64,000 nucleotides of DNA from positions 310,001 to 374,000 of the forward strand of contig CAJYTY010000008.1 in the NCBI GenBank assembly GCA_913777945.1, in the 5' to 3' direction. The DNA is from an uncultured Acinetobacter sp. (lineage in GTDB: Bacteria; Pseudomonadota; Gammaproteobacteria; Pseudomonadales; Moraxellaceae). The notes below the pieces were generated by a model. It saw only the letters and a list, made by a program, of their open reading frames with translations. It was not told where the DNA came from and ran no database searches. A program made the position numbers and the translations under genes. The stretch's first letter is position 1. The number at the start of each line of letters is the position of its first letter. This document shows positions 37,933-44,286 of the stretch, in pieces.

Positions 37933-38817
37933 TTATGCATGAATGCAATTTTGTTTTAAAAGAAAAATGTCGTCTTGTGGCCATTGATAGGTCCACAATA
38001 ATTTTTGCAAGTTATGCCAAGTGTCATCCTCAGCCTCAGTATTTTTTCTCAGAATTTCACCTAAAGAAAAATATTGAACGATACCTGTAAGTGGTTCTGC
38101 ATAGGCATGTGCTGTCGTTTCTTGATCTTGTGCTTGGCGAATACCAGCTCGTTGGTCTGTGAGTGGCTCAAGTAGGGCATAACCCAAATTAGTTGCCGAT
38201 ATCCAACTTAAATTTTGATCATTAAAGAACGTTCTAAGCGCATCTGCTTTTAATGCCAACAGTTGGGTAAATGCCTGAACTCGATTAATTTGTTTACGTT
38301 GCTGATATTCAATAAGCAAATCTTGTCGATCTAAAATGGCAAATCCAGTTTTGATTTTCTTTAGGGCTGTTTCTAATTCATTTTCGGCATGTGTCGTAAT
38401 TTCTAAAAACTCGATAATTTGTCCACCAGCAAAACGGCTACGTTTAAGTATGTTTGTTAGTTTTTCTGGACTAATCCGAGAGCTAGAAAATTTGATTACA
38501 AGGCTAAACTCTAAATGACAAGATGCGGTTGGTTGTAAAGACAACGCATATTTATTTTTAGAAGAATAGTCCTTTTTACCAATAAACACGGCACCACGAC
38601 GTTGAGCAGGTGTAAAGCGGCCGTAGGCTTGCCCACCTAAACGTTGTTGGTCATGATGAATATAAATAATGCCTTCATCTGTTGTACCAAGTTGCCTTGC
38701 CAAATGATGTGCAAACATATTGGCTGCAAATAAAGGTACACCGCCTAATAACAGACCATTAGTTTGCATATTTGCATTTTGTATTCGCATACGTGGAATC
38801 ACGACATAACGACTCAT
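37933..38817 (-). CDS. csy2: Cas5f/Csy2 Cascade subunit
   Basis: 294 residues. YVVIPRMRIQNANMQTNGLLLGGVPLFAANMFAHHLAR is the conserved Csy2 N-terminus. It pairs with Csy1 and holds the 5' handle of the crRNA, contributing to recognition of the CC PAM. Its ATG overlaps the csy1 stop (ATGA). Confidence 0.94.
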   Translation of the reverse strand: MSRYVVIPRMRIQNANMQTNGLLLGGVPLFAANMFAHHLARQLGTTDEGIIYIHHDQQRLGGQAYGRFTPAQRRGAVFIGKKDYSSKNKYALSLQPTASCHLEFSLVIKFSSSRISPEKLTNILKRSRFAGGQIIEFLEITTHAENELETALKKIKTGFAILDRQDLLIEYQQRKQINRVQAFTQLLALKADALRTFFNDQNLSWISATNLGYALLEPLTDQRAGIRQAQDQETTAHAYAEPLTGIVQYFSLGEILRKNTEAEDDTWHNLQKLLWTYQWPQDDIFLLKQNCIHA

Positions 38818-39980
38818 CGAACAATCTCCCGTAAGCGGCGGGCGATATAACCTCCTGAATTACTATCTAGGCTAATTGATACAGTTTCATTATTTATTTC
38901 TATATCAAACGTTTCATTGGTAATTTTTCTAGCCAGATAATCTGAGAACTTTATTCTCCAGTGATCATCTCTTAGTTCTGGATCAATCAAACCGTGTAAA
39001 ACAAACGAAAGGCTCGGATGAACCCAAAATGAAGGGCGCTCAATCTCTTCCATACTTGGTAGAATTGCTTCAGCTTCTTCTAAAATATTTTTTTGGAAAG
39101 TCGCTTGTCTTAATACATCTTTAGCAAGGATATTCAGGAAAATAACTTCCTGATCTCGAACATCCCGATTAGTAGAAGGAGCGAAAATCTCGAGGTCATG
39201 CCAATTTTGAATGGTATTCGTTGCAGTAATAACAAGTTGGCGATTTAAAATTTCTGACCATTCTTTAATCGCTTCTTTTGCCCGTTTAGTTCCATTAAGC
39301 AGTTTTATCTTGCGGGATAGTCGTATCGTAAATCCGTTATAGAAAATAGCTAATGCTTGGCGTACTTTTTCACTTGCTTGAGGAGCGTCCACTGTTATAG
39401 GGCGTTGCATGGAACGAACGAGGCTTCCGACATTTTGTGGATTGGCTCCGCCTATACCAAAAATAGCAGTTTGAATGCGGTTAAATTCACTGTCTTTTTC
39501 CTTGCGTAATTCATTTACAGCATCAACTTCTTGATTCACGAGATAATTAACACCTGCAGCAGTAAGTGGGCTTACTGAGACATATTCCCCATTTTTTGGA
39601 ATTAAAAGCTGACGCATACGTATATCAATGTTTTCTGTACCAGCTTGATAGGGCTCATTAAAAACAGATGAAATGGATGGCTTGAGTTGTTCAACTTGCT
39701 GTTGGAAGTCGAAATCTTCTTCACTAGTATCATGATTAATCATAGCTGCTTTTACGACTTTAAAAATAGAAGCCGTTTTACCTGCATTTGCCTGATAGTC
39801 AGTGGGAATAAGGAAGTCTTCATTTAATAAAGTTCGAGCACTGAGATAAGGTAAATCAAGTGCTTGTTGCTTACTTAAACGAATTCCACCTTTTTCAATA
39901 TTGGAATTAATCGTCTTTAAACTAAAGTGTACCGATTCTTCTAAAGCGTTTATAAAAATATCAGTTTGTGGTTCAGGCAT
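38814..39980 (-). CDS. csy1: Cas8f/Csy1 Cascade large subunit
   Basis: 388 residues, shorter than the Pseudomonas protein (about 430). IFGIGGANPQNVGSLV matches the conserved GG.NPQNxS motif of Csy1, and FWVHPSLSFVLHGLIDP is near the C-terminus. It recognises the PAM and recruits Cas2-3. First gene of the minus-strand operon csy1-csy2-csy3-cas6f-cas1; GGGGAAGATA precedes the ATG. Confidence 0.92.
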   Translation of the reverse strand: MPEPQTDIFINALEESVHFSLKTINSNIEKGGIRLSKQQALDLPYLSARTLLNEDFLIPTDYQANAGKTASIFKVVKAAMINHDTSEEDFDFQQQVEQLKPSISSVFNEPYQAGTENIDIRMRQLLIPKNGEYVSVSPLTAAGVNYLVNQEVDAVNELRKEKDSEFNRIQTAIFGIGGANPQNVGSLVRSMQRPITVDAPQASEKVRQALAIFYNGFTIRLSRKIKLLNGTKRAKEAIKEWSEILNRQLVITATNTIQNWHDLEIFAPSTNRDVRDQEVIFLNILAKDVLRQATFQKNILEEAEAILPSMEEIERPSFWVHPSLSFVLHGLIDPELRDDHWRIKFSDYLARKITNETFDIEINNETVSISLDSNSGGYIARRLREIVR

Positions 39981-40046
39981 TATCTTCCCCGTTTTTGTTA
40001 TCTAGCCAATTTTTAACACATTATTTGGAAAATGAAAGTGTTGAAG

Positions 40047-40081
40047 AAACACTTGGCGTCATAAATTGTCGCCAAGTGTTT
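40047..40081. other. Perfect 12-bp inverted repeat upstream of csy1
   Basis: AAACACTTGGCG (40047-40058) and CGCCAAGTGTTT (40070-40081) with an 11-nt loop, 67 bp upstream of the csy1 start. Neither strand has a long T-run after it. It could be a terminator for the 72-residue gene, an operator for the cas operon, or both. Confidence 0.6.
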
Positions 40082-40114
40082 TGAACATTAAAGTGACTGG
40101 TAATTAATTTAAGT

Positions 40115-40145
40115 AAAGCCGACATTATTCATAAATATCGGCTTT
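40115..40145 (-). terminator. Probable terminator of the 72-residue gene
   Basis: AAAGCCGA (40115-40122) and TCGGCTTT (40138-40145) form a stem 10 bp beyond the stop codon of the minus-strand gene; the following T content is modest. Confidence 0.5.
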
Positions 40146-40155
40146 AAATAGAGTT

Positions 40156-40374
40156 CTAGCTGGTATGACATGCATTACAACAGTAATAACATCCGTTGAT
40201 TCGAGCGTTAGGCCATCTTTGTTTTGCTGTTAAGACTGCGCTAAAACAATTTAAATGTTCACCTAGATCTACTCTATTTTGAGGATATGGCATGAATGAG
40301 CAACCTGTTGTTAGGTTATGAACTTCATAATCGCCATTTGCTTGAATATTTTGATTGATAATGAATTTAGCCAT
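40156..40374 (-). CDS. Small conserved Cys/His-rich protein of unknown function
   Basis: 72 residues. I recognise the sequence type (MAKFIINQNIQANGDYEVH start, C..., CYYCCNACHTS end) as a small protein found in various gamma-proteobacteria, without a known function. The Cys and His residues suggest a metal site or redox role. GAGGAATAAGAGCT precedes the ATG. It follows a 29-codon ORF by 5 bp and shares its promoter. Position between csy1 and cas2-3 is unusual; it may be a passenger of the CRISPR region or of the CreTA-like module. Confidence 0.75.
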   Translation of the reverse strand: MAKFIINQNIQANGDYEVHNLTTGCSFMPYPQNRVDLGEHLNCFSAVLTAKQRWPNARINGCYYCCNACHTS

Positions 40375-40379
40375 AGCTC

Positions 40380-40469
40380 TTATTCCTCACAAATCATAAT
40401 GATTGTAGGTCGATCTATGCTTTGTTGTGTAGCATGATGAGACAAAAGTTTGAAATTTTGTGCTATCAT
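40380..40469 (-). CDS. Short ORF, 29 residues, upstream of the Cys-rich gene
   Basis: Not a recognised family. ATG at 40469 is preceded by a perfect GGAGGA (40483-40478) with 8-nt spacing, and the frame runs to TAA at 40382-40380, 5 bp before the next start. The peptide begins MIAQNFKLLSHH and ends ICEE. Likely a leader peptide or small protein translated together with the 72-residue gene. Confidence 0.65.
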   Translation of the reverse strand: MIAQNFKLLSHHATQQSIDRPTIIMICEE

Positions 40470-40516
40470 TCAGATAGTCCTCCGTAGTAATTGAACGCTG
40501 TGGAAATGGACATAAG

Positions 40517-40556
40517 GCAGGTATGAAGTTTGGTCACGGAATACCTGCTTTTTTTT
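40517..40556 (+). terminator. Strong plus-strand intrinsic terminator
   Basis: GCAGGTAT (40517-40524) pairs with ATACCTGC (40541-40548), followed by eight T. It has no plus-strand gene upstream, so it either ends a small RNA antisense to the 29-codon ORF or insulates the creT candidate from read-through. In the minus-strand mRNA the same sequence is a 5' UTR hairpin. Confidence 0.75.
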
Positions 40557-40573
40557 ATGCCTTTTCATAAATT

Positions 40574-40602
40574 AAGATATATTTGTCCAAAATTCTTGTC
40601 AA
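40574..40602 (-). promoter_or_regulatory. Minus-strand promoter for the 29- and 72-residue genes
   Basis: Perfect -35 TTGACA (40602-40597), 17-bp spacer, -10 TATCTT (40579-40574). Expected start near 40567, giving a leader of about 100 nt before the GGAGGA site. Its -35 overlaps the -35 of the divergent creT promoter. Confidence 0.6.
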
Positions 40603-40626
40603 GCATTATTTTTAGTCAAATAAAAT
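40596..40626 (+). promoter_or_regulatory. Candidate creT promoter
   Basis: -35 TTGTCA (40596-40601) and -10 TAAAAT (40621-40626) with a 19-bp spacer, or AATAAA (40619-40624) with 17 bp. Expected start about 40632, inside the protospacer matched by the mini-array guide. Confidence 0.5.
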
Positions 40627-40656
40627 TTTTCTATCAATCATACCTAAGTATTAAGG
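40626..40656 (-). promoter_or_regulatory. Protospacer with CC PAM matched by the creA guide
   Basis: On the minus strand CC at 40656-40655 is followed by a sequence matching the guide at 40753-40781 at 19 of its first 23 positions. Mismatches are at 6, 12, 13 and 14; positions 6 and 12 are flipped out of the heteroduplex in type I-F. Seed 1-5 and 7-11 are perfect. The site covers the predicted start of creT. Confidence 0.8.
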
Positions 40657-40725
40657 GTGTTAATTTTTTAAATGAATTTCAAGTATTCCTTATTAGGATT
40701 TGTTATAATAAAATTCCTTACATAG
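40632..40725 (+). ncRNA. creT: Candidate creT toxin RNA
   Basis: Boundaries are estimates. A transcript starting near 40632 would hold AAGGG (40653-40657) and a 17-codon ORF, ATG 40672 to TAG 40725, beginning MNFKYSLLGF and containing two consecutive rare Ile ATA codons. CreT RNAs described for other CRISPR loci are toxic through short ORFs with tandem rare codons that sequester a tRNA; the AUA pair fits that idea. The gap from AAGGG to ATG (14 nt) is long, so the translated part is uncertain. Toxicity is inference. Confidence 0.5.
40701..40709 (+). promoter_or_regulatory. Extended -10 promoter of the mini-array
   Basis: TGTTATAAT (40701-40709) is a perfect extended -10 (TGnTATAAT). Expected start near 40716, 9 bp before the first repeat-like copy. 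No good -35 is needed for this class and none is seen. Confidence 0.65.
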
Positions 40726-40866
40726 TTCGCTATCGAATAGATAGTTGAGAAATTAATGCTTAGCATTGATTGATATGTGATTTTTGCCATCGCATAGATG
40801 GTTTAGAATATAGGGCTATTCTAATCTTAAGTTTTAACATTCGCTACTAACTAAAAGATTCAGAAA
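40716..40866 (+). ncRNA. creA: creA-like mini-CRISPR antitoxin RNA
   Basis: Three repeat-like copies on the plus strand at an exact 57-bp period. The copy at 40725-40752 matches 22 of 28 bases of the array repeat, 40782-40809 matches 23, and 40839-40866 matches 17. In the first two the 5-bp Cas6f hairpin is intact although bases changed: pair 6-20 is C-G instead of T-A in both, and in the first copy pair 7-19 is T-A instead of C-G. The third has lost the hairpin. Guide 1 is 40753-40781 (29 nt), with handle UUGAGAAA; guide 2 is 40810-40838. Guide 1 matches the creT promoter. It should be bound by Csy1-3/Cas6f and repress creT. Confidence 0.8.
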
Positions 40867-40898
40867 GCCTTATTTCTTCTTTAAAAGTAATTTTGAAA

Positions 40899-40926
40899 GT
40901 TGCTCATCATGTAGACCATTTATAAA
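40899..40926 (+). repeat. Decayed CRISPR repeat copy
   Basis: Matches 20 of 28 bases of the array repeat, exactly 60 bp after the copy at 40839 (so a canonical 32-nt spacer at 40867-40898). Stem pairs 7-19 and 8-18 are broken, so Cas6f cleavage is unlikely. It indicates that the mini-array is the remnant of a normal CRISPR array. Confidence 0.6.
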
Positions 40927-41049
40927 AGTCCATCCAATGCTTAAGGCGACATATTTTGTCGTTAAAAAACAGTATTAAGCTGATCAAAACTTTCTCTTTT
41001 TAAAACAAAAGATTATATTTTTACTATATTTAAAATTAAATCATAAACT
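40927..41049 (+). promoter_or_regulatory. Region upstream of cas2-3
   Basis: 123 bp, AT-rich, should hold the cas2-3 promoter. Late AT-rich segments such as TATATT (41024) are possible -10 elements. No clear ribosome site precedes the ATG at 41050. Confidence 0.35.
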
Positions 41050-44000
41050 ATGCATGTCATTTTCATCTCGGCTTGTGAAAAAAGAGCTTTAAAGAAAACT
41101 CGAGCGATTTTGGATAGCTATGCTATTCGTACAGGACATTTGTCTTGGCAAGCACCAATGACAATGGACGGCTTAAAAGAAATTCGTAGCGCATTAAAAA
41201 AGGTAGCCACCCGACAAACTGCTGTAGCCGCTTACATTAATTTTGGTGTACGCAGAATGAAGCTTGCATGGGTTGTTGGAGCAAAACATAAATTTGCCCA
41301 TAACGGTGCATATCCAGTTGCATCAACTAAAAAACAGCAAAAACTACTGATGCTAGATGAATGGGTCAAAGCAAGTAGCTTGTTGGCGGGTGCAGCAGGA
41401 GACATGCATGATATTGGTAAGGCATCCCAACATTTTCAGAAGAAATTAAGCCCAGAAATGGCAGGACAAAAAATTAGAGATGATATTCGACATGAATGGT
41501 TGTCTTTAAAACTATTACAACAACTCAGAAAAAATGGATGGGACTGGCAGCTTGCTTGGAAAAATTTAGATAAAGGGTTAGATAAATTTACTTTAGGTGA
41601 TCGACAAGAAATAGAGCAGGGAATTCAAAACGAATTAGAAGCAGTGGATTATTTGGTTGTTACGCATCATGGTTTATTAGGAGTCGAAGAGGCTTTAAAA
41701 AATGATCCACTTGCATTACCCAATTATGAAAATCATGTTCGTACATTAGTTCCAAGTTTAGAACAAATGAGCTGTGCAGGTGAGTTGCCAGACTCTATTT
41801 TTAAAAGTCATCAAAAACGTATGCAGCGTTTAACTGAATTATTATCACAACAAAAAACAGATCAGCTTTTATATTGGAAAGCTTTAGTACTGCATTCACG
41901 AGCAGCATTGATTCATGCTGATCATATTGTCTCTGCACAGCAGTATTCTGTACAAAAGCCTGAAAATATTACATTATTTGCAAATACAAAACTTAAAACT
42001 ATAGACCATGATAAGAAAGCCAAATTACAAGATCAGCCACTAGAATGGCATTTACACCAAGTTGGAGATCGGGCTTCACGTATTGCAGTTCAAATGATGA
42101 CTGATTTGAGTTTATCAGGGCTTTGTGAGCAAACAGTTGAATATATTTGTCAGCCCACCACTCATCCGCATTTTCAATGGCAGAACATTGCAGCAAATGC
42201 ATTGCAAAAAAATATACAGAAGCACCCTGAAACACCAGCACTCATACTCAACATAGCAGGAACTGGAAGCGGTAAAACGCGTATGAATTTGCGTGCTGCT
42301 AGCACTTTACGGCCAGATGATACAAGACTAGCAATTGCGCTTAATTTGCGCTCTCTCACTTTACAGACTGGACACGCGCTTAAAACATCAATGAATCTGT
42401 CTGATGATGAAATTGCTGTGATTATTGGCGACACGATCACACAGACTTTATTTGATCAAAGTAAAGAAAAAATTGAGTTCGTTGATGAAGATGAAAATCG
42501 TCCTGAACCTATTTTCGACGCATGGGGTGAAGACTGTAATTTACCAGATTGGCTACATCCATTATTTACAATTGAAAAAAATGGACGCAAAGTTTTAGAT
42601 CAAAAAGAAACAACCATTCTGGCTTCGCCATTACTGGTTTCAACCATTGATTATCTGATTGCAGCAGGTGAGCCACATCAACAAGGACATCATGTTAAGG
42701 CATTACTTAGGATAATGACTAGTGATTTGATTTTAGATGAGGTAGATGGCTATGAGCCTAAAGCACTGATTGCAGTATTGCGCTTAGTTCAGCTCGCTGC
42801 ATTCTACGGTCGGAACGTAATTTGTTCATCGGCAACCTTATCACTGACGGTTGCCAAAACAATTCATCGGGCGTTTGAGTCAGGGATGCAAATGCGTGCG
42901 GCTCTCTATGGAAATGAGAAGAAATCAATCATTGCAATTATTGATAACGAGCTTAAACCACAAGTTTGGTTAGAGCAGTCAAATCAAAACTCAGAATTTG
43001 AGACTCGCTACCAAAATCATTTGGATAGCTTGCAAATTCAATTACTTTATAAACCTACTTATCGATTGGCTCAGCTGTTTTCATTGCCTGAAACTACAGT
43101 GTTATCTTGGAAACAGTCGGTATTGGAAGGAGTAAAGCAACTTCATCAAGCGCATGCATGGCATTTTAAAAAGACCGAAAAGAAAATTTCTTTGGGGCTT
43201 ATACGAGTAGCGAATATCAAACATGCAATTCGTCTTGCCCAATTTTTATCAGATCATTTATCTGAGGCAAAAATCGCTTGTTACCATGCAAATGACTGGC
43301 TTATCTCAAGATTTTATAAAGAGCAACGTCTAGATCAGCTTTTGACTCGTCATAAAGATGGAAAAAAAAGAAAAACTGGTAATGAGCAGATCGAGCAAGA
43401 TGATGAAATTATTGATCTCATTCAAAAATCTAGTTCTTTAAATATTCCATTTATTGTGATTGCAACACCAGTGGAAGAAGTCGGGCGAGATCATGATTTT
43501 GATTGGGCTATTATTGATGCATCAAGCGTACAATCAATTGTACAAACGGCTGGTCGAGTGAATCGTCATCGATTAGAGAAAGTAAATCAGCCCAATATTA
43601 TGATTCCTGAGTGGAATTATCGTTATTGCGAGCAACATGATATCGAAAAACGAAAGCAGAAAAGCAAACAACGTCATCCAGTCTTTATATATCCTGGTTA
43701 TGAGGGATATGGTGTATCTGCAACTTCAACGTATTCATCTCAAACTTTAAGCGAACTTTTACCGTGGGATCATCAATCTCAATTAATTATTAATGCTCGA
43801 TTACGTTTTGATCAAGTGAGTTGTCTATTTGCTAAGTTAGATGATGAGCAAATCAAGAACTTTTGTAAAAACTATTTTAATGATCAAGGAGAACAGTTAT
43901 TTTCTCGGTCAGATGTCGATGCAAGTATCATGACAGAAAACATTTATAAGATGACGCCTTTACGTGATCGTAATTATCAAGAAACTTATGTGTTTGAGTG

Positions 44001-44286
44001 GTCTGATTGCTTAATTGTAAAAAAGCAAGTGTATGGTTTTGATGAAAAAGCCACAAAAACTTTAAAGTATCCAAAATATGGTTTGGTATGGAACCAAGTG
44101 AAGTTTGAAGAAATTCCTCCAAAACCTCAAGCATGGTTATCACTTACGCCGCAACAAATGGAAGATTATTGTTTCAAGCATCAAATCACCAATGAACAAG
44201 GCTGCCGTATATCCTTAACACCTTATAGTAGGGATGATGTGACAACTTGGTCCTATGATTATGGTTTTGGCGTTTTTGCACATTAA
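41050..44286 (+). CDS. cas3: Cas2-3 fusion helicase-nuclease (type I-F)
   Basis: 1078 residues. Residues about 1-90 are the Cas2 domain that type I-F fuses to Cas3. The HD nuclease has H120-D121 (MHDIGK), HH in VVTHHGLLG and HADH. The helicase has TGSGKT (405-410), DEVD (563-566), SSATL and the GRVNRH motif VI (835-840). It degrades DNA opened by Cascade and, with Cas1, acquires spacers. It is transcribed away from the csy-cas1 operon, with the CreTA-like module between. A bidirectional terminator follows. Confidence 0.95.
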   Translation: MHVIFISACEKRALKKTRAILDSYAIRTGHLSWQAPMTMDGLKEIRSALKKVATRQTAVAAYINFGVRRMKLAWVVGAKHKFAHNGAYPVASTKKQQKLLMLDEWVKASSLLAGAAGDMHDIGKASQHFQKKLSPEMAGQKIRDDIRHEWLSLKLLQQLRKNGWDWQLAWKNLDKGLDKFTLGDRQEIEQGIQNELEAVDYLVVTHHGLLGVEEALKNDPLALPNYENHVRTLVPSLEQMSCAGELPDSIFKSHQKRMQRLTELLSQQKTDQLLYWKALVLHSRAALIHADHIVSAQQYSVQKPENITLFANTKLKTIDHDKKAKLQDQPLEWHLHQVGDRASRIAVQMMTDLSLSGLCEQTVEYICQPTTHPHFQWQNIAANALQKNIQKHPETPALILNIAGTGSGKTRMNLRAASTLRPDDTRLAIALNLRSLTLQTGHALKTSMNLSDDEIAVIIGDTITQTLFDQSKEKIEFVDEDENRPEPIFDAWGEDCNLPDWLHPLFTIEKNGRKVLDQKETTILASPLLVSTIDYLIAAGEPHQQGHHVKALLRIMTSDLILDEVDGYEPKALIAVLRLVQLAAFYGRNVICSSATLSLTVAKTIHRAFESGMQMRAALYGNEKKSIIAIIDNELKPQVWLEQSNQNSEFETRYQNHLDSLQIQLLYKPTYRLAQLFSLPETTVLSWKQSVLEGVKQLHQAHAWHFKKTEKKISLGLIRVANIKHAIRLAQFLSDHLSEAKIACYHANDWLISRFYKEQRLDQLLTRHKDGKKRKTGNEQIEQDDEIIDLIQKSSSLNIPFIVIATPVEEVGRDHDFDWAIIDASSVQSIVQTAGRVNRHRLEKVNQPNIMIPEWNYRYCEQHDIEKRKQKSKQRHPVFIYPGYEGYGVSATSTYSSQTLSELLPWDHQSQLIINARLRFDQVSCLFAKLDDEQIKNFCKNYFNDQGEQLFSRSDVDASIMTENIYKMTPLRDRNYQETYVFEWSDCLIVKKQVYGFDEKATKTLKYPKYGLVWNQVKFEEIPPKPQAWLSLTPQQMEDYCFKHQITNEQGCRISLTPYSRDDVTTWSYDYGFGVFAH

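What the first reader, a model, noticed from the sequence alone, without database searches (positions are those of the whole stretch)
40725..40809. Mini-CRISPR with hairpins kept by compensatory changes, a creA-like guide RNA gene inside the cas locus
Seen: two copies of the array repeat on the strand opposite to the array's transcription, 57 bp apart, matching 22/28 and 23/28. Changed stem bases are paired changes (6-20 and 7-19), so the Cas6f hairpin survives. A perfect extended -10 (40701-40709) sits 15 bp upstream. This encodes a complete crRNA: handle UUGAGAAA, 29-nt guide, hairpin. Known: CreA RNAs are crRNA-like antitoxins with degenerate repeats located between cas genes, and CreTA modules have been reported in type I-F systems of Acinetobacter. 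Inference: this is the creA of this locus.
Basis: partly seen in the sequence, partly recalled or inferred. Interest (0 to 1): 0.95.

Follow-up and report, generated by a model that had tools for sequence, protein, structure and literature searches.

The report
CRISPR-guarded toxin switch, new cargo
Two decayed CRISPR repeats between the cas genes of an Acinetobacter enclose a short guide that partly matches, beside the correct CC motif, a DNA site upstream of a small cysteine-rich protein gene, so the CRISPR machinery likely holds that gene, a predicted toxin from a huge unstudied family, switched off for as long as CRISPR works.

Summary
In detail: two degenerate type I-F repeats (40725-40752, 40782-40809, +) with compensated stems lie between csy1 and cas3. 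(1) The 29-nt guide has a CC-flanked target at 40626-40656 (-): 19 of the first 23 bases match, and 0 of 2000 shuffled guides do as well. (2) Relatives agree: 11 of 19 readable csy1-cas3 gaps hold a mini-array, each with a CC-flanked cognate site (L037 weak), and in two species guide and target differ together. (3) Behind the target lies a - strand unit ending in a 72-residue Cys-rich protein gene (40156-40374) under purifying selection, from a family of 5,914 protein clusters; orf72 has no Pfam match. It lacks the motif of the published I-F CreT. In sister loci the slot holds a KilAC protein, another small protein, or an intact CRISPR array; the window keeps a relic of such an array's end. 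A conserved structured antisense RNA probably overlies the leader. Verdict: a real creA-like guide gene and a new cargo variant of CRISPR-repressed toxin modules. Transcription, processing, repression and toxicity are untested.

The parts
40725..40752 (+). R1, degenerate repeat; 3' handle TTGAGAAA
   Evidence: 22/28 to array repeat; 6/6 stem pairs, two compensated
40753..40781 (+). guide S1 (29 nt)
   Evidence: CC-flanked target, 15 of 17 scored positions, 0 of 2000 shuffles
40782..40809 (+). R2, degenerate repeat, hairpin kept
   Evidence: 23/28, 6/6 pairs, one compensated
40745..40801 (+). predicted mature CreA-like RNA (57 nt)
   Evidence: inferred from Cas6f cutting 3' of the stem; coordinates
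40701..40709 (+). extended -10 TGTTATAAT, possible creA promoter
   Evidence: only match in the window, 3.1 expected by chance; the six - strand creA relatives have TGTATAAT 7 nt before R1
40839..40866 (+). R3, decayed repeat relic
   Evidence: 17/28, exactly 57 bp after R2, no hairpin
40899..40926 (+). R4, decayed repeat relic, probably the terminal repeat of a former second array
   Evidence: 20/28; 151 bp from cas3, against 152 bp for the last repeat of the intact second arrays in L023 and L072
40626..40656 (-). target of the guide: PAM CC (40655-40656) and 29-nt protospacer
40574..40602 (-). best predicted promoter of the repressed unit (TTGACA-17-TATCTT)
   Evidence: 10/12 match, but the number of promoter-like sites in the region is not above chance; TTGACA kept in 4 of 5 orf72 loci
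40514..40556 (+). terminator-like hairpin plus T run, end of a predicted antisense RNA
   Evidence: the plain terminator scan found none (its loop limit is 8)
40461..40469 (+). extended -10 TGCTATCAT of the predicted antisense RNA (about 40475-40556)
   Evidence: conserved in 5 of 5 orf72 loci; the promoter role is inference
40380..40469 (-). leader mini-ORF (29 aa) with GGAGGA Shine-Dalgarno (40478-40483) and start-codon hairpin
   Evidence: start region conserved, peptide not
40156..40374 (-). orf72: 72-aa Cys-rich protein, candidate CRISPR-repressed effector
   Evidence: purifying selection; PHROG 4298; 5,914 protein clusters; AF2 pLDDT 96
38814..39980 (-). csy1
   Evidence: weak, sub-threshold Pfam Cas_Csy1 match; position and homologs next to csy2
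41050..44286 (+). cas3f (Cas2-3 fusion)
   Evidence: TIGR02562, 1538.8 bits

Best explanation
The mini-array at 40725-40809 is a creA-like guide gene: its RNA is predicted to be cut by Cas6f, to load the Csy complex, and to bring that complex to a CC-flanked partial match at 40626-40656, where it would block transcription of a - strand unit ending in the 72-residue Cys-rich gene orf72, a likely toxin or other harmful effector. Shown by sequence: repeats, compensated stems, guide-target match with PAM, co-variation of guide and target among species, selection on the orf72 protein. Inferred: transcription, processing, repression, toxicity. When Csy is lost or blocked by an anti-CRISPR, orf72 would be switched on and would punish the cell or stop the invader. 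A conserved antisense RNA over the leader likely gives a second lock.
For: Target with CC PAM, 0/2000 shuffles; PAM+seed CCTTAATNCTTAG once in 2.49 Mb of the own genome, at this place. A CC-flanked cognate site in each of the 11 mini-arrays found, beating 2000 shuffles in eight, with 1/2000 in L029 and L073. Guide and target differ together in L027 (positions 7, 8) and L028 (position 11). Mismatch at position 6, a position not used in CreA pairing (PMC8501985). R1 stem: 72 of 72 cells paired, 16 double changes, covariation score not reached in 500 shuffles. orf72 dN/dS 0.05-0.2 over ten pairs, the leader peptide about 0.8-3 over the six pairs of the four close loci. The one close locus with orf72 but no creA or array seen (L030) has an in-frame stop in orf72. 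KilAC proteins, a phage-derived class akin by name to the published protein toxin CreP, sit in the same slot in four sister loci. CC is the working PAM of this subtype in A. baylyi (PMC7192602). [quoted passage not shown]
Against: No expression or toxicity data. orf72 homologs exist in many genomes, phages and plasmids, while the leader was found only in the cas gap, so most of the family is not under this control and its toxicity is unknown. The best predicted promoter has its -35 box 23 bp beyond the protospacer, and promoter-like sites there are at chance level. In one search the reversed control pattern also occurs once in the own genome, so a single occurrence is not rare in itself, and the assembly is 64% complete. 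The stop in L030 is a single case. The eleven loci are related, so counts are not independent; L037 alone is weak (40/2000). In one search the number of pairs with double changes (4) was reached by 22 of 500 shuffles.
Confidence: 0.62

Rival explanations
1. The toxin is the leader RNA, not orf72: the strong Shine-Dalgarno, the start-codon hairpin and AUG-AUA of the mini-ORF would poison translation like published CreT RNAs, and orf72 merely follows.
For: GGACTATCnnAATGATAGCACA is among the best conserved non-coding blocks and the peptide behind it is not conserved. A CreT with two AUA codons sequesters tRNA-Ile in H. hubeiense (PMC8501985, section read). The I-F CreT needs Shine-Dalgarno, start codon and a hairpin (PMC10097628).
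Against: Only one AUA codon; the same block read from the other strand fits a promoter and an antisense RNA with better-kept pairs. orf72 itself is under purifying selection. The published CreT motif is absent from all 95 loci.
Confidence: 0.15
2. The guide guards a defence gene rather than an addiction toxin: orf72 would be an anti-phage effector released when Csy is inhibited (a CRISPR-suppressed immune system).
For: orf72 matches a phage protein family and relatives occur in 8 phage and 15 plasmid records; of the two phage neighbourhoods looked at, one is a prophage control region next to an antirepressor gene and one an inovirus. CRISPR-suppressed defence systems between cas genes are reported (passage in PMC12409349).
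Against: No PADLOC match for orf72; no phage data.
Confidence: 0.15
3. CreR-type autoregulation: the mini-CRISPR represses the cas genes themselves.
For: It lies between the two divergent cas genes, and CreR RNAs are described for other systems.
Against: The only good CC-flanked site for S1 is 645 bp from the csy1 start and about 393 bp from the cas3 start; S2 and S3 have no good site in 39881-41150 (best 10 of 17).
Confidence: 0.04
4. A dying CRISPR array without function.
For: Four degenerate repeats; L023 and L072 keep intact arrays at the same place, and R3 and R4 are decayed.
Against: R1 and R2 keep stems by compensation while R3 and R4 do not; the guide keeps its target in relatives.
Confidence: 0.04

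Closest known systems
CreTA of Acinetobacter sp. WCHA45 and kin (type I-F; PMC10097628)
   Same: creA in the cas3-csy1 gap, two degenerate repeats with hairpins, partial match to a CC-flanked site, mismatch at position 6, toxin unit divergent from creA
   Different: no 33-bp CreT mini-ORF of the WCHA45 motif; guide 29 nt instead of 20; the gene behind the target codes for a conserved 72-aa protein; gap 1069 bp instead of about 400
CrePA (protein toxin with a KilA-type domain and CreA; Shu et al. 2025 Nat Chem Biol, not held, known to me only through passages of PMC12737573 and PMC13131331)
   Same: a crRNA-like guide represses a phage-related protein gene; four sister loci carry a KilAC protein in this very slot
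   Different: orf72 has no KilA-type domain; it belongs to PHROG 4298, function unknown
Cascade-repressed toxin of Citrobacter rodentium (type I-E; PMC12055562)
   Same: gap between cas3 and the effector operon; CreA upstream and on the opposite strand; [quoted passage not shown] the toxin must be translated
   Different: a 96-bp ORF without known homologs; type I-E
CRISPR-suppressed immune systems (CRISIS; bioRxiv 2024.12.27.630466, not held, seen only as a passage in PMC12409349)
   Same: accessory genes between cas genes kept off by the CRISPR effector
   Different: published cargoes could not be compared here

Membership tests
creA (CRISPR-derived guide gene) | two degenerate repeats of the linked array flanking a short spacer | tested here: met
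   22/28 and 23/28; no other position outside the array and the gap's repeats reaches 18/28
creA (CRISPR-derived guide gene) | Cas6f hairpin kept | tested here: met
   6/6 pairs in R1 and R2 of the window; 72/72 cells in R1 of 11 loci plus the array repeat
creA (CRISPR-derived guide gene) | partial match to a nearby PAM-flanked site, seed positions 1-5 and 7-11 | tested here: met
   seed 10/10 with CC PAM; 0/2000 shuffles
creA (CRISPR-derived guide gene) | RNA processed by Cas6f and loaded on Csy | not testable with these tools
   needs small-RNA sequencing
CreTA of the WCHA45 type | 33-bp CreT mini-ORF, ATG TTT AGC NNG CAT hairpin | tested here: not met
   no exact match in 95 loci; in the window 24 inexact hits against 30.6 expected; motif assembled by me from the paper's text
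CreTA (RNA toxin) | toxicity lies in an RNA | not testable with these tools
   the peptide of the mini-ORF is not conserved, its start region is
CrePA | a protein-coding gene under selection behind the CreA target | tested here: met
   orf72 dN/dS 0.05-0.2
CrePA | the protein is toxic and repressed by CreA and the effector | not testable with these tools
   needs expression tests
CrePA | KilA-type domain | tested here: not met
   no Pfam family for orf72 at E up to 1, while the L022, L025, L026 and L073 proteins have ANT/KilAC at 6e-11 or better
CreR | target in the promoter of the cas genes | tested here: not met
   only good site is 645 bp from csy1 and about 393 bp from cas3
CRISPR array for immunity | near-identical repeats and regular 32-nt spacers | tested here: not met
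   repeats 17-23/28, spacers 29, 29, 32

The most novel reading that the evidence does not exclude
The csy1-cas3 gap of Acinetobacter I-F loci is an exchangeable toxin slot under a double lock: a CRISPR-derived guide holds the promoter and a conserved antisense RNA holds the leader, while the cargo is swapped between KilAC, an acidic small protein and orf72. orf72 would be the first assigned function, a CRISPR-repressed toxin or defence effector, for an uncharacterised protein family of 5,914 clusters with members in phages, plasmids and chromosomes.
Probability: 0.42. Interest if true: 0.78.

Novelty: new variant of a known kind. Interest (0 to 1): 0.62.

Why it matters
CRISPR-repressed toxins explain how a costly immune system is kept and how cells answer anti-CRISPR proteins, but few cargoes are known. 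This locus names a precise new candidate cargo with its guide, target and leader, and it makes the function of a very large unstudied protein family testable in a harmless laboratory Acinetobacter. The side-by-side loci (intact second array, relic of an array plus creA, creA plus three cargoes) also offer a way to study how creA genes and spare arrays come and go at one site.

Full report
THE OBSERVATION. The window carries a type I-F locus: cas1, csy4, csy3, csy2 and csy1 on the - strand, an array of 87 repeats (GTTCGTCATCGCATAGATGATTTAGAAA, one with a single change) oriented on the - strand, and cas3f on the + strand. This resembles the arrangement called I-Fa in A. baylyi, with cas1 last in the operon (PMC7192602, passages seen). 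csy1 itself has only a sub-threshold Pfam match and is named by position and by its homologs next to csy2. In the 1069-bp gap between csy1 and cas3, R1 (40725-40752) matches the array repeat in 22 and R2 (40782-40809) in 23 of 28 bases; of 116,622 other position-strands scored outside the array and this spot none reaches 18. R1 has two compensated stem pairs and R2 one.

First, two more decayed repeats follow in register: R3 at +57 (17/28) and R4 at a further +60 (20/28), both without the hairpin. So the right-hand part of the window's gap is most likely the relic of such an array, beside which R1 and R2 alone kept their stems. Second, the guide has a target. On the - strand CC|TTAATACTTAGGTATGATTGATA (40656 downwards) matches guide TTAATGCTTAGCATTGATTGATA at 19 of 23 positions with mismatches at 6, 12, 13 and 14; over the whole 29 nt it is 20. 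Scored on the 17 positions among the first 20 that are not multiples of six, it reaches 15; none of 2000 dinucleotide-shuffled guides found an equal CC-flanked site in the gap (mean best 9.6). The PAM plus seed CCTTAATNCTTAG occurs once in the 2.49 Mb of the held genome, at this place. As a caution, the reversed control pattern also occurs once, and that assembly is only 64% complete; in the 64-kb window, with one mismatch allowed, one match is found against 0.23 expected. CC is the working PAM of the A. baylyi system (PMC7192602).

RELATIVES. Of 175 genomes of the genus 18, the window's own included, have a csy1 match; two plasmids add two loci (its other two hits, Allochromatium and Pseudomonas, were not followed). 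Of these 20 loci one (L038) lacks cas3 on its contig. Of the 19 readable gaps, 11 hold a mini-array (window, L022, L024-L029, L033, L037, L073), 2 an intact array (L023, L072), 1 an R1-like remnant only (L035), and 5 none that I could see (L030, L031, L032 with one lone 18/28 match, L034, L036); more degenerate ones could have been missed. 15BJ (L026), A. calcoaceticus DSM 30006 (L027), A. modestus (L028), A. venetianus RAG-1 (L029), A. stercoris (L033), an uncultured Acinetobacter MAG (L037) and plasmid pANC7974.1 (L073). Each of the 11 mini-arrays has its best CC-flanked site on the - strand, upstream of the small gene: shuffles that do as well number 0 of 2000 in eight loci, 1 in L029, 1 in L073 and 40 in L037, which is weak. 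There are four seed families: TTAATnCTTAG and its variants, GAGACTAGATT, GCGATnCTTC and GATGTATAC. Within the first, L027 has guide TTAATCTATAG against target TTAATATATAG and L028 TTAATGCTTAT against TTAATACTTAT, so three positions differ in guide and target alike. Loci are related, so these counts are not independent events. The handle is TTGAGAAA in eight mini-arrays against TTTAGAAA in the array; the pattern that found these eight demanded GTT[GA]AGAAA, so the informative count is that 8 of 10 close loci have it followed by an R2. Over 11 R1 plus the array repeat all 72 stem cells are paired, with 16 double changes and a covariation score of 0.70 (both reached by 0 of 500 shuffles); the number of pairs with a double change, 4, was reached by 22 of 500, and the number of pair types, 7, by all 500.

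THE REPRESSED UNIT. To the left of the target, on the - strand, the five orf72 loci share a hairpin, a block GGACTATCnnAATGATAGCACA that follows or holds a Shine-Dalgarno sequence and the start of a mini-ORF, and orf72, which begins about 250 bp beyond the target. The mini-ORF peptide is not conserved: dN/dS about 0.8 to 3 over the six pairs of the window, L024, L027 and L028, and saturated against L029. orf72 is: dN/dS 0.05 to 0.2 over all ten pairs, for instance window against L024 dN 0.02, dS 0.28, and against L029 dN 0.16, dS 1.74. orf72 has 72 residues with invariant C25, C43, C62, C65, C69 and H70 in 78 aligned sequences, which suggests a metal site (inference). It matches PHROG 4298, function unknown (1.8e-20), no Pfam family, and a profile finds 5,914 protein clusters; the 120 that were listed carry no Pfam domain. 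The model has pLDDT 96. Homologs occur in 44 of 175 genus genomes, 15 plasmid records and 8 phage records; of the latter I looked at two neighbourhoods, a streptococcal prophage control region and a Vibrio inovirus. In L030, which has orf72 in the gap but neither creA nor array that I could find, orf72 has an in-frame TGA; this is what a toxin without its antitoxin would show, but it is one case, and homologs outside the gap have stops in some genomes too. Three proteins in the database that start like L024 orf72 end early or in another frame (P0039, P0042, P0047), which may mean the same or nothing.

THE LEADER. The hairpin is followed by a T run on the + strand and has stem pairs changed on both sides (2 of 13 pairs, seven loci). 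Taken as + strand RNA, the five orf72 leaders fold into two conserved stem-loops (consensus -20.7, 103 of 105 cells paired, 15 of them G-U); as - strand RNA the consensus is -12.8 with 79 of 85 paired and one G-U. That asymmetry, the T run and the extended -10 TGCTATCAT at 40461-40469 point to a + strand antisense RNA of about 80 nt that covers the Shine-Dalgarno region; the window's own piece folds with z -3.0. By DNA similarity the leader occurs in 6 of 175 genus genomes, each time in the csy1-cas3 gap (4 candidates per genome were scored), although orf72 homologs occur elsewhere. L073 has the same hairpin in front of a KilAC protein, and L037 in front of an acidic small protein that begins with nearly the same 13 residues; L033 has a similar hairpin with the loop the other way round (by eye). 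L022, L025, L026 and L073 carry KilAC proteins (Pfam ANT, 4.1e-13, 5.2e-13, 5.7e-11 and 2.6e-17); the first three have the guide GAGACTAGATT and its own target.

MECHANISM. The most likely reading: creA RNA, perhaps from the promoter at 40701-40709, is cut by Cas6f, loads Csy, and Csy binds the target. The best - strand promoter (TTGACA-17-TATCTT, 40602-40574) has its -35 box 23 bp beyond the 29-nt protospacer, so the bound complex would cover the UP-element region, as described for C. rodentium (PMC12055562, section read). In L022 and L026 a -35-like TTGATA lies inside the protospacer (by eye). The number of promoter-like sites in this AT-rich region is not above chance (7 found, 6.8 expected), so the geometry is inferred. 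Loss or inhibition of Csy would then release orf72.

KNOWN OR NEW. CreTA in type I-F Acinetobacter is published (PMC10097628; sections 6, 8, 9, 10, 11 and 15 read), including the place between cas3 and csy1. What differs is the cargo: the published CreT motif is absent from all 95 loci. Protein cargoes (CrePA, with a KilA-type domain) and CRISPR-suppressed defence systems are known to me only through passages of other papers; their own papers are not held. In the searches I ran I saw no report of an orf72-like cargo, of this leader RNA, or of cargo exchange at this site; since the key papers were not held and the supplementary lists of PMC10097628 (19 more modules) could not be read, some of these loci may be listed there.

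Noticed in passing
window 40057-40071 and 40947-40961: A palindrome of the form CGACAnnnnnTGTCG (window: CGTCATAAATTGTCG and CGACATATTTTGTCG) lies 77 bp before csy1 in 8 of 10 close gaps and about 95-104 bp before cas3 in 10 of 10, exact or nearly so, and in some distant gaps: a likely operator of an unknown regulator of both cas promoters.
   Followed up: partly
L023 (IGR 279-1386) and L072 (IGR 278-2706): An intact second CRISPR array of 19 and 41 repeats fills the csy1-cas3 gap where relatives have the toxin slot.
   Followed up: partly
L029, IGR 940-1500: A. venetianus RAG-1 has, besides the creA-orf72 module, two further + strand ORFs in the gap that look like a Phd-Doc (Fic) toxin-antitoxin pair (by eye).
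   Followed up: no
window 40755-40767: The guide contains an inverted repeat AATGC-TTA-GCATT; in L029 it is AATAC-TTA-GTATT, so guide positions 6 and 12, which need not pair with the target, changed together.
   Followed up: no
L037, IGR about 770-1700: An insertion sequence (transposase-like ORF) sits between the mini-array and cas3.
   Followed up: no
close loci L022, L024-L028 against window and L029: The creA element lies on the - strand (in line with the cargo) in six loci and on the + strand (divergent from it) in the window and L029, with similar repeats and guides: it has probably been turned round at least once.
   Followed up: partly
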